NCBI GenBank assembly: GCA_029582155.1
Contig: CM055895.1
Location: forward strand, 49,705,750-49,769,749
Source of the DNA: Panopea generosa
Lineage: Eukaryota > Mollusca > Bivalvia > Adapedonta > Hiatellidae
Length of the DNA: 64,000 nucleotides
Reading direction: 5' to 3'
Shown: positions 34,801 to 55,055 of the stretch, one piece after another
Layout: each line of letters begins with the position of its first letter
How positions within the stretch are numbered: the stretch's first letter is position 1
Notes under the pieces: generated by a model
What the model saw: only the letters and a program-made list of their open reading frames with translations
Told to the model about the DNA's origin: nothing
Database searches by the model: none
Made by a program: the position numbers and the translations under genes

Positions 34801-37800
34801 AAATCCTCTCAGTCAACCAAACAGGATAAATAATAAGTTAAATCCTCTCAGTCAACCAAATAGGCTAAATAAGTTAAATCATCTCAGTCAATCAAATAGG
34901 CTAAATAATAAGTGAAATCATTTCAGTGAACCAATAGGCTAAATCATAAGTTAAATCATCTCAGTCAACCAAATAGGCTATATAAGTTAAATCCTCCAAG
35001 TCAACCAAACAGGCTAAATCATAAGTTAAATCATCTCAGTCAATCAAACAGGCTAAATAATGAGTCAAATCATCTCAGTCAACCAAATAGGCTAAATAAT
35101 AAGTTAAATCATCTTAGTCAACCAAATAGGCTAAATCATAAGTTAAATCATCTCTGTCAACCAAACAGGCTAAATCATAAGTTAAATCATCTCAGTCAAT
35201 CAAACAGGCTAAATAATGAGTCAAATCATCTCAGTCAACCAAATAGGCTAAATAATAAGTTAAATCCTCTCAGTCAACCAAATAGGCTAAATAATAAGTT
35301 AAATCCTCTCAGTCAATCAAATAAAGAAAAGTCGCTCCACCAATCTGATAGGGAAATTCACCTTGATCTATCAAAACAGAACACTTCTCTTCGTCAGTCA
35401 AACAGTGTAAACCAACTTGTTATGCTATATATATATGACCTTGGTCAATAGAATTTAAGGAAGAAAGGAACTTGCAGTTGGTTTTACTATTTCAAATGAC
35501 ATGTAATTTGTCCAATTTCATTATTTACGTCACTTTAACGTTATGTTTATATGTAACTTGTGAATAAACTTCAGTCAGCACAATAAAAATGGACAGGTAA
35601 AATATTTGCCTACAATAATCAAGTTTTCTCTTGATGTATAGTCAAACCTGTCTTAAACAGCCAGTCAAGGGAATGAGTAAAAGTGGCCTATTAAGACAGA
35701 TTGTTGCTTAATATAGGTTAATTTGCCTTGAAAGCATAAAAATGGGAAATATAAACTTTATAAGACAAGTGGCTACTCAATTGGTGACCTCTTACACAGG
35801 TTTGAATGCACCGAAATCATATTTCGAGTTCTGAAATGAACAATATTAAACACAAGTAACAACCTTACCTTGCTATGAGAATCTATTCTCGCATTTATTT
35901 GCCCATCTAATATAAGCTGCATAAGTTCATCTTCTAAATCTAACACAGTTGTGTTGAATGCTCGGGCCATCTTCCCCATGTCTGCTGATAAATACGGACT
36001 GAAATACTAAAGTTATTGCTGAAATCAATAACATGTTTTATTTATGGGGTTTAACGCCATTTTCAAATATACCAGGTTATATATGGTATATCCAGTTTTG
36101 TTGGTAGAGGAAGATCTTAGACTGAATCTTAGTTGTTCAGCCAGTCTGAACTGTATTTTTGTTAGAGGCGAGCTCCTCCAACATATACTTGGCCGCAAGT
36201 TAAAGATGTGTCAGTCATTTGAAGTTATTCAACTGCTGAATTATTGTACGAACAAACGCTGCTGCTTATCGTCAGTTTGAAATGTGTCCGTAATTATGCA
36301 GAAGTCAGTCACCTTTATACCATTTTTATTTTTCATAATTTTGATAGCTCCACTTTTTAACAGTACAACAAGGACAACATAAACCAGACAATGAACTTCA
36401 ACAACCAGACTAATCCTTAACTGTTGACAAGTACACAATCATACATTTTGGTATGACAATCTAATTTCGTCAACATTTTTCTTTAGATGTTTCTGTATTG
36501 ATAGCTTTACAGCCTTTAGTAAATCAATTCAGGCAGTAAACATCTATTCATTTTAGATACCAAATTTCATATATGGTCCAGTGATTCTTAACATTCTTTA
36601 AAATGTTAAAGAAACAAACTACTACTGTTGGCCTGGACTGCACTGGAGGGTTCATTTTAAATATTACACAATTCAATTATTCCAATAAATTTTATTGTAG
36701 AAGTGAAATAACATACCTGGCAAAGTGCCCTGTTCCTAATTTGTGAGTAGAGTGTATTTACATGTGGAACTAGGTACATGTCTAGATATAAATGGTCCTG
36801 AAATACAAAAAAGCAACAACTTGATTTCTTACATGTGTTTTTTTAGGGGAGGGAGTTATTTGTGAATAGGGTTGTATGCCATTTTTACTCATTATAGGTT
36901 ATATATTGCGACCAGTTTTATTGGTTCAGGAAGGCAACAGATTCAGAAATCTGAGTAGAACTGCTGTCCTGCAAAATACTGGCAAACTTTCTGAGATGAA
37001 GACTTTGGGACGAAACTGTGATCGGACACAACCTTGATGATGTGGTCTCAGTTTTGCAGTAAATGTTTATATACTTAGAAAAAAAATGAAATTTGTCAAT
37101 ACAAATATCCCTTCTATTGATCCGAAACCCATTTTTCTTTTACGAAAACAAATATCGAACCGTATTTTAAAATTATACATTAAATTTTCAATTAAATACA
37201 TAAACCACTTCAGAAGTTATTGAACCAATTCTTATCAACGAACACATGGACATAGGGGTAACATTGAACACCCCCTTCACCTTTGTTTAAAGGCAGAGGC
37301 ATCAAATATCATCAAATACAAGAACACTTGTTTCAACACTTGTTGATAAATTTACAAGAAATATTCAATATCTTGATAGCAAATCTTACCTTTAATTCAT
37401 CTAGTAATTTTAGGCAGGATGCATAATTGGACTCATAAAATTTGTGTATAATATCACGTAGTTGAGGTTCAAGCTCCAAAAACAATTTGAAAGAACTGAA
37501 ATGATACATAAAATAAATACTAAATAAGAGCTGTGGGAGGGACAGTGCGCTCGACTATTTCGATGCTGTTCTAAACAACAACAGCTTTTTCAGGAAACAA
37601 ATACCAAATGGAAGACAATAATTAAAACTCAGGGGTGGTAAAATTAATCTTTAGTTATTGCTTGTCTGTTAAAAAGGAATTAATAAAATAATTCACCAAC
37701 ACTATTTATTTTCATTATCAACAATTATGTTTTTTTGAAAACAACAAAGTAGATAGACGGCTCATATTGCCTTAATATTATTTAATTCAGCTTTGTCATT

Positions 37801-55055: not shown

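What the first reader, a model, noticed from the sequence alone, without database searches (positions are those of the whole stretch)
37524..53440. Covarying terminal inverted pairs in AACAAGAG...GAGCTAAAA repeats: Helentron/HINE-like architecture
Copies at 32571, 37524, 38647, 47462, 48888 and 53109 share the outer ends (AACAAGAG at 5', GAGCTAAAA at 3') but differ inside. Directly after the 5' end is a 6-bp hairpin whose sequence differs by family yet stays paired (AGGCCC/GGGCCT; GTTGTC/GACAAC). Next comes a short block complementary to the 3' terminus, again family-specific: GCTCTACTG with CAGTAGAGC, GCTCGCC with GGCGAGC, GCTCGACTATT with AATAGTCGAGC. Some 3' ends add a hairpin (CTGGCC-ttt-GGCCAG; CTATTC-tac-GAATAG). 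The inverted repeat is displaced inward at the 5' end and sits at the tip at the 3' end, as described for Helentron/Helitron2 elements and their HINE derivatives. Changes on both arms at once suggest the pairing is under selection. Several copies lie within 150 bases of CSN1 exons.
Basis: partly seen in the sequence, partly recalled or inferred. Interest (0 to 1): 0.85.

Follow-up and report, generated by a model that had tools for sequence, protein, structure and literature searches.

The report
Jumping DNA that follows gene direction

Summary
The repeats exist and fit HINEs, non-autonomous Helentron/Helitron2 elements, read in reverse: the "3' end" GAGCTAAAA is the 5' end (TTTTT|AGCTC, terminal repeat, nested hairpin); AACAAGAG is the 3' end (CTCTTGTT) preceded by hairpin and inner repeat. 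Covariation between families is real but already reported for such ends; within family 1, hairpin variants are one-sided. A Helentron with Rep, PIF1 and endonuclease domains is present with a similar 5' end but another terminal repeat; no partner with the same repeat was found.

The unexpected result is orientation. All 16 end modules in the window point one way. On contig C1, adjacent copies 1-100 kb apart agree in 44 of 51 cases (p=6e-8), over three families, with no agreement beyond 100 kb (21/39); SINE (12/34) and LINE (5/11) controls show none. Where a gene strand was readable within 30 kb of a copy, the Helentron strand is the sense strand in 8 of 9 genes, 5 of 5 inside or within 1.5 kb (CSN1 included, where the idea arose; 7 of 8 without it). 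Best reading: insertion strand follows local transcription, plausibly through exposed non-template DNA. Replication direction and post-insertion selection stay open; nine genes are few.

The parts
32258..32296 (-). HINE 3'-end module (Helentron orientation), partner end not found
   Evidence: profile hit E 0.0072
32571..32759 (-). two-ended HINE, family 2 (GCTCGCC with GGTGAGC; inner hairpin TTGTC-AGAA-GACAA)
   Evidence: profile hits E 3.1e-4 and 5.2e-8; ends
37523..40592 (-). two-ended HINE, family 3 (ATAGTCGAGC pairs 10 of 10 with the inner block; hairpin CTATTC-TAC-GAATAG), interrupted by the next copy
38646..40219 (-). two-ended HINE, family 1 (GCTCTACTG with CAGTAGAGC; hairpins GGCCC..GGGCC and CTGGCC-TTT-GGCCAG), nested in the family 3 copy in the same orientation
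   Evidence: paralogous empty site
45979..46016 (-). HINE 3'-end module, partner end not found
   Evidence: profile hit E 8.5e-6
47462..47875 (-). two-ended HINE, family 1
48877..49146 (-). two-ended HINE, family 2 (GCTTGCC with GGCGAGC)
52970..53008 (-). HINE 3'-end module, next to and resembling that of the following copy
   Evidence: profile hit E 2.3e-6
54560..54597 (-). HINE 3'-end module, partner end not found
   Evidence: profile hit E 0.0027
34110..51935 (-). CSN1 gene (COP9 signalosome subunit 1), confirmed exons; five HINE copies (37523, 38646, 45979, 47462, 48877) lie between them, two (32258, 32571) lie 1.3-1.9 kb past the last coding exon
54963..55310 (-). probable first coding exon of CSN1; if so, three more copies (52970, 53107, 54560) lie in the first intron
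   Evidence: its only two PDB matches are CSN1 chains, collinear with the next exon but weak, E 0.39 and 0.47

Best explanation
The repeats are non-autonomous Helentron/Helitron2 elements (HINEs). Each is presumably mobilised in trans by a Rep/Helicase that recognises a 5' end made of TTTTT followed by a terminal repeat that folds into a hairpin, and a 3' end made of the complementary repeat, a second hairpin and CTCTTGTT (architecture shown here; mobilisation by Rep inferred from the family). Their insertion strand is not random: within a transcription unit the copies lie with the Helentron strand on the sense strand. The most likely mechanism is that the Rep nuclease, which cuts single-stranded DNA, joins the element's transferred strand into the non-template strand exposed by germline transcription. 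Shown: architecture; orientation clusters of about gene size; no such clusters in one SINE and one LINE control. Supported by few genes: sense orientation. Inferred: the single-strand target and its cause.
For: Architecture. Of 28 ends collected (E<0.07, aligned on AGCT), 27 read AGCTC and one AGCTT; 26 of 28 form the hairpin; TTTTT precedes them in 8 of the 11 that were not fetched by a seed requiring it. Of 23 opposite ends, 16 read CTCTTGTT, 6 differ by one base and one has two extra bases. The inner repeat lies 26-28 nt from that end. This matches Helitron2/Helentron ends.

Orientation. Three families merged on C1 0-64.8 Mb (152 copies): adjacent pairs 1-30 kb apart agree in 20 of 21, 1-100 kb in 44 of 51 (binomial p 6.1e-8), 100-300 kb in 21 of 39. 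Clusters linked at <100 kb: 23 of 30 uniform, 11.6 expected, 0 of 10,000 shuffles. Without the two densest runs 29 of 35. Family 3 against family 1, all pairs <100 kb (not independent): 18 of 18. Controls at 1-100 kb: SINE 12 of 34, LINE RT motif 5 of 11; HINE against both, Fisher p 8e-7. In four 10-kb stretches on either side of two orientation flips, 12 of 12 modules with E<0.05 follow their seed; they include at least four further elements.

Genes within 30 kb with readable strand: 8 of 9 sense (one-sided p 0.020; 7 of 8 without CSN1): CSN1, GH35 exon in L049, nicastrin-like exon in L072, myosin in L056, WD40 gene on C1 with the copy between two exons, RRM C2:39.25 Mb, kinase C1:52.69 Mb, helicase C1:9.34 Mb. 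At 30-100 kb 6 of 12, as a gene-sized effect predicts.
Against: One of nine genes is antisense (helicase frame C1:57.28 Mb, 21 kb), and a kinase just outside the bound, at 30.7 kb, is antisense too; the 30-kb bound was noted after two of the five gene families had been seen. Nine genes is a small sample; the four at 13-25 kb may not be the gene that holds the copy; the nicastrin match is weak (15 residues, below Pfam's cut-off); two of the nine belong to a multi-copy helicase class. Families 2 and 3 alone over C1-C3 agree in 15 of 20 pairs at 1-100 kb, less than on C1. Seven of 30 clusters are mixed, one pair being 4.7 kb apart (C1:44.98 Mb). In family 1 alone, pairs 300 kb-1 Mb apart agree in only 5 of 23, and the SINE gives 5 of 21 at 30-100 kb; I have no explanation for either. 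One opposite end hit in L074 (E 0.26) was below the cut. The HINE, SINE and LINE lists cover different stretches, since a search lists only its first 100 places; in the stretch of the SINE list HINEs agree in 5 of 6. No expression or replication data exist here, and the transposase of these families was not identified.
Confidence: 0.6

Rival explanations
1. Replication direction sets the strand: the element inserts into the lagging-strand template of a passing fork, as IS200/IS605 elements do in bacteria, and forks tend to run with genes.
For: HUH elements of the IS200/IS605 family recapitulate replication direction (PMC5371812 passages). Orientation domains exist and flip sharply. Long uniform runs (12 copies at 29.1-30.1 Mb, 8 at 59.0-60.1 Mb on C1) could be fork domains.
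Against: Agreement is gone beyond 100 kb (21 of 39 at 100-300 kb), shorter than typical fork domains (recalled), and 8 of 9 genes agree with sense. Neither excludes forks that follow genes.
Confidence: 0.2
2. Insertion is random in strand and antisense copies in introns are removed by selection.
For: Biased TE orientation in introns by selection is common in other animals (recalled). The sense bias is seen at genes.
Against: The SINE (12 of 34) and LINE (5 of 11) controls show no orientation clusters, although the LINE sample is small. The sense strand begins ATTTTTAG|CTC, which resembles a 3' splice site, so selection would be expected to disfavour it (inference). Poly(A)-like hexamers are about equal on both strands (4 and 3 in five window copies). 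About 86% agreement between neighbours needs near-complete loss of antisense copies and few intergenic ones.
Confidence: 0.17
3. The runs are local duplications of one HINE-bearing segment, or an assembly artefact.
For: The window holds what looks like a duplicated segment (51.0 and 63.2 kb), and one family 2 pair lies 279 bp apart.
Against: Pairs under 1 kb were dropped. Runs mix families (18 of 18 family 3 with family 1 pairs agree), the 12-base flanks of the copies read differ, and the window copies are of three families with different ends and lengths. Flanks of the copies known only by position were not read.
Confidence: 0.03

Closest known systems
HINE / DINE-1 (non-autonomous Helentrons; Drosophila, mites, mosquitoes)
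   Same: 5' subterminal repeat near the tip, in DINE-1 with a nested inverted repeat, 3' repeat displaced inward, 3' palindrome, T-rich target, no target modification, families defined by the repeat (PMC4067079 passages and section 7).
   Different: Own repeat sequences; orientation along genes was not found reported.
Cg_HINE and Pearl elements of oysters
   Same: 5' subTIR with IR, GTCY-type microsatellite, 3' subTIR and palindrome (PMC7492417 section 7); copies here carry AGAC/GGAC/CGAC tracts at the matching place, consistent with the complement of such a microsatellite.
   Different: Cg_HINEs were described as inserted in both orientations, without mention of domains (section 9). No autonomous partner was linked there either (passage).
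Helitron2 (Chlamydomonas, mosquito, Fusarium)
   Same: Asymmetric terminal repeats with hairpins at both ends, insertion after TTTT in an algal element, compensatory changes between two related elements (PMC3627910 and PMC5148889 passages).
   Different: Some have TSDs or ORFs in reverse; no orientation domains in the passages seen.
Helraiser (bat Helitron, reactivated)
   Same: Rolling-circle HUH element that favours gene bodies and highly expressed genes (PMC4778049 passages).
   Different: Canonical Helitron; enrichment about two-fold in gene bodies; strand relative to transcription not mentioned in the passages seen.
IS200/IS605
   Same: HUH transposase acting on single strands; orientation follows a genome process (PMC5371812 passages).
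   Different: Bacterial, tied to the lagging-strand template; here the scale is that of genes.

Membership tests
HINE / non-autonomous Helentron (Helitron2 group) | 5' repeat 0-4 nt from the 5' end, 3' repeat displaced inward | tested here: met
HINE / non-autonomous Helentron (Helitron2 group) | Hairpin nested in the 5' repeat and hairpin near the 3' end | tested here: met
   5' hairpin, at least 5 of 6 pairs, in 26 of 28 ends. 3' hairpin seen by eye in window copies: GGCCC-AAGA-GGGCC, TTGTC-AGAA-GACAA; weaker (4 bp) in the family 3 copy
HINE / non-autonomous Helentron (Helitron2 group) | T-rich target, no target-site duplication | tested here: inconclusive
   TTTTT at 8 of 11 junctions not chosen for it; one paralogous empty site without a long duplication, one junction ambiguous
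HINE / non-autonomous Helentron (Helitron2 group) | Autonomous Rep/Helicase/Endonuclease partner with the same ends | tested here: not met
   81 Helitron_like_N matches, 30 loci fetched. Best-preserved group: Rep, PIF1 and Exo_endo_phos, 5' end TTTTTATGCGGATGTGAC-GTA-GTCACA in two copies, other repeat. A second group is 72% alike and its ends were not found. The other groups' ends were not looked at, so a partner may exist; this feature defines the pair, not the architecture
SINE | Pol III promoter boxes, TSD, tail repeat | tested here: inconclusive
   No long TSD at the one empty site; Pol III boxes were not searched for. The paired ends speak against a SINE
Cut-and-paste TIR element (MITE) | Symmetric terminal inverted repeats at both tips | tested here: not met
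   Repeat at one tip only, 26-28 nt inside at the other

The most novel reading that the evidence does not exclude
A eukaryotic rolling-circle transposon inserts strand-specifically into the non-template strand of germline-transcribed genes, so that its copies are a fossil record of which genes were transcribed in the germ line and in which direction.
Probability: 0.4. Interest if true: 0.88.

Novelty: new variant of a known kind. Interest (0 to 1): 0.68.

Why it matters
Which strand and what kind of target DNA a Helitron-type element uses in vivo is unsettled; the HUH nuclease needs single strands, and transcription and replication are both proposed sources. Thousands of oriented copies in one genome turn that into a measurable question. 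If the transcription reading holds, HINEs mark germline-transcribed genes and their direction, would explain why they gather in a gene such as CSN1, and give a marker for strand annotation. The work also corrects the orientation in which such repeats would be annotated from sequence alone.

Tried and rejected
Pattern AACAAGAGAGGCCC: 15 hits, 8 fetched; only L005 carries HINE modules. Frames resembling LINE reverse transcriptase were seen by eye in that set, so the pattern was dropped as a HINE probe.

Autonomous partner: 19 of the 30 fetched Helitron_like_N loci form one group; two copies compared are 99.9% alike over 1.9 and 3.1 kb; its terminal repeat differs and its right end was not reached. 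Group 2: two copies 72% alike, no ends found. Groups 1, 3 and 5 and the 51 matches without a locus were not followed.

Candidate exons in L051, L052 and L075 would all be sense but were not confirmed by Pfam or PDB and are not counted; nor are two doubtful degenerate ends in myosin loci L059 and L067.

Gene test: exon rows of five Pfam families on C1-C5 (22 myosin, 28 RRM, 48 kinase, 42 helicase, 55 WD40, of 81, 109, 136, 135 and 150 rows listed). Five genes lay within 30 kb of a listed HINE. Rows on other contigs could not be used because each pattern search lists only its first 100 places (family 1: C1 to 64.8 Mb; family 2: to C3:50.7 Mb; family 3: to C5:33.3 Mb).

A dense pattern CGAGCTAAAAAT was asked for twice, not answered, and given up. 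Paper searches for orientation bias, strand bias, R-loop and transcription direction with Helitron/Helentron/DINE-1/Helraiser listed nothing that by title or abstract reports such domains; one search listed 15 of 21 papers, 12 of 17, 15 of 460; passages were read in PMC5371812, PMC4778049, PMC13286980, PMC4067079, PMC7492417 and PMC5148889.

Full report
What was checked. They are present and above chance. Profiles built from the two ends give 10 modules of one end and 6 of the other in the window, every one on the + strand, all between 32.2 and 54.6 kb. Some coordinates and one quoted pair needed correction (see observation check).

What they are. The window lies in an unnamed 1.47-Gb genome of 39 contigs; from its repeats it looks like a mollusc, perhaps a bivalve (recalled, not tested). 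A 16-base end of family 1 has 2,698 exact copies, against none for the reversed control; family 2 has 710 and family 3 has 348. Read in reverse complement, the copies start after TTTTT with AGCTC and a terminal repeat folded into a short hairpin (6 bp and a 3-nt loop in families 1 and 3, 4-5 bp in family 2; 26 of 28 ends with at least 5 of 6 pairs), and end with the complementary repeat, a second hairpin and CTCTTGTT. That is the layout of Helitron2 and Helentron ends: repeat at the 5' tip with nested hairpin, 3' repeat 20-60 nt inside before a hairpin, insertion at TTTT or TT, no target duplication (PMC3627910 and PMC4067079, passages). Oyster Cg_HINEs share further details such as a GTCY-type microsatellite (PMC7492417 section 7).

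Covariation. Between families the hairpins and the two repeats change on both sides (GCTCTACTG/CAGTAGAGC, GCTCGCC/GGCGAGC, GCTCGACTAT/ATAGTCGAGC). Within family 1 the hairpin variants are one-sided. This suggests that pairing is kept in the lineages that transpose and decays in resident copies. The family 3 pair rests on one copy, the exact family 2 pair on one (L077). Compensatory changes in such ends were already reported for two mosquito elements (PMC3627910 passage).

Autonomous partner. Helitron_like_N gives 81 matches in the genome. Of 30 loci fetched, 19 form one group; 11 rows have a 2,098-aa open frame. It has the GSPHIH motif and Helitron_like_N, PIF1 and Exo_endo_phos domains; two copies compared are 99.9% alike and share a 5' end TTTTTATGCGGATGTGAC-GTA-GTCACA of similar layout. 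Its right end was not reached. Its repeat differs from those of the window families, so it is not shown to be their partner. The same gap was stated for oyster HINEs (PMC7492417 passage).

Empty site. The family 1 copy at 38646-40219 sits in a family 3 copy; related uninterrupted units read about CATAAYTSTGCCAAAATGCAACCC. The A-rich junction is accounted for by host AAAAT; no long duplication is seen; the other junction is uncertain by a few bases.

Orientation. This was not in the finding. In the list the first 100 family 1 copies on C1 come in runs: adjacent copies under 100 kb apart agree in 30 of 34, and 0 of 5,000 label shuffles reach this. In the same list pairs 300 kb-1 Mb apart agree in only 5 of 23, unexplained. 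Adding families 2 and 3 gives 152 copies on C1 0-64.8 Mb: 44 of 51 pairs at 1-100 kb agree (20 of 21 at 1-30 kb), 21 of 39 at 100-300 kb. Of 30 clusters linked at under 100 kb, 23 are uniform, 11.6 expected, 0 of 10,000 shuffles; leaving out the two densest runs, 29 of 35 pairs agree. Cross-family agreement is 18 of 18 for families 3 and 1, 6 of 8 for 2 and 1, and 7 of 10 for 3 and 2, all pairs under 100 kb, not independent. Families 2 and 3 alone over C1-C3 agree in 15 of 20. Four 10-kb stretches fetched at two flips of orientation hold 12 modules with E<0.05, all in the direction of their seed. A SINE (tRNA-derived by recall; 9,036 copies) gives 12 of 34 and a LINE reverse-transcriptase motif (by recall; 908 copies) 5 of 11 at 1-100 kb; HINE against both, Fisher p 8e-7. 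The three lists do not cover the same stretches; within the SINE stretch HINEs agree in 5 of 6.

Genes. CSN1 is on the minus strand, with confirmed exons from 34.1 to 51.9 kb and a probable first exon at 55.0-55.3 kb (weak). Five copies lie between confirmed exons, three more before the probable first exon, two just past the last coding exon; for all of them the Helentron strand is the sense strand. The same holds for a GH35 exon beside the copy in L049 (E 3e-12), a nicastrin-like exon among three copies in L072 (weak match), a myosin gene in L056, and a gene of WD40 exons on C1, coatomer-alpha-like by recall, with a copy between two exons, its second end weak (E 0.24). These five are inside the gene or within 1.5 kb of an exon: 5 of 5. 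Using exon rows of five Pfam families without fetching sequence, four more genes have a listed copy at 13-25 kb: RRM, kinase and one helicase sense, one helicase antisense. Total 8 of 9, one-sided p 0.020; without CSN1, where the idea arose, 7 of 8. A kinase at 30.7 kb is antisense. At 30-100 kb the tally is 6 of 12 genes, which is what a gene-sized effect predicts.

Density. The profiles find 16 modules in the 22 kb from 32.2 to 54.6 kb, none in the other 42 kb of the window, none in 136 kb around Helitron-type genes, and one in 52 kb around myosin exons. This hints at enrichment in some genes; it is not a controlled estimate.

Mechanism. HUH nucleases cut single-stranded DNA, and Helraiser favours gene bodies about two-fold (PMC4778049 passages). 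Insertion of the transferred strand into the non-template strand of a transcribed gene would give what is seen: sense orientation, gene-sized domains, no effect on SINEs or LINEs. Replication-directed insertion, known for IS200/IS605 (PMC5371812 passages), and selection against antisense copies are the rivals. Selection is made less likely by the lack of clusters in the two controls and by the splice-acceptor-like start ATTTTTAG of the sense strand (inference), but only young insertions can decide. Neither rival is excluded.

Verdict. HINE identity: high confidence (about 0.93). Orientation domains: very high (about 0.97). Link to transcription: moderate (about 0.7). Insertion into exposed non-template DNA as the cause: about 0.4. 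Oyster HINEs were described as inserted in both orientations with no domains mentioned (PMC7492417 section 9), and eight paper searches listed no report of such domains by title or abstract (not all hits were listed); the library lacks most subscription journals.

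Noticed in passing
window 7383-8711, minus: 443-aa uninterrupted frame with MR_MLE N and C domains (enolase superfamily) near an intron-rich gene; possibly a horizontally acquired or intronless gene, or contamination.
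   Followed up: no
window 10.8-18.8 kb: Long satellite-like array with overlapping open frames in several minus-strand frames and extreme GC skew (0.51 at 12-16 kb).
   Followed up: no
window about 51.0 and 63.2 kb: Very similar stretches on the same strand about 12.2 kb apart (AACAAGAGAAAGATATTTAAAATA at 51070 and a close match at 63290, and two further shared motifs), apparently a local duplication.
   Followed up: no
window 9112 and 47121: Copies of what looks like a tRNA-derived SINE (by recall), a family with 9,036 exact motif matches in the genome, used as control.
   Followed up: partly
G000 C1, C2, C3, C5, C9, C10, C19 and others (L018-L025, L027-L035, L037, L038): A group of very similar Helentrons, 11 rows with a 2,098-aa open frame; two copies compared are 99.9% alike, which suggests recent activity.
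   Followed up: partly
G000 C12:45.909-45.930 Mb (-) and C12:69.305-69.327 Mb (+): RRM exon sets with identical scores in opposite orientation 23 Mb apart: a large inverted duplication or an assembly duplicate.
   Followed up: no
L046 32-283 (+), L072 3666-4094 (+), L074 1916-2302 (-): A second repeat whose frame reads ...CSKYQQNPSMHDKVTG...; in these three loci it has the same direction as the HINEs and may be another element with the same bias.
   Followed up: no
G000, helicase_C frames of about 200 aa on many contigs: Multi-copy class of similar helicase_C frames, perhaps a mobile element or an expanded gene family; two of the nine genes in the orientation tally belong to it.
   Followed up: no
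G000 C1, family 1 pairs 300 kb-1 Mb apart: Adjacent HINE copies at this distance agree in only 5 of 23 cases, fewer than half; not explained.
   Followed up: no
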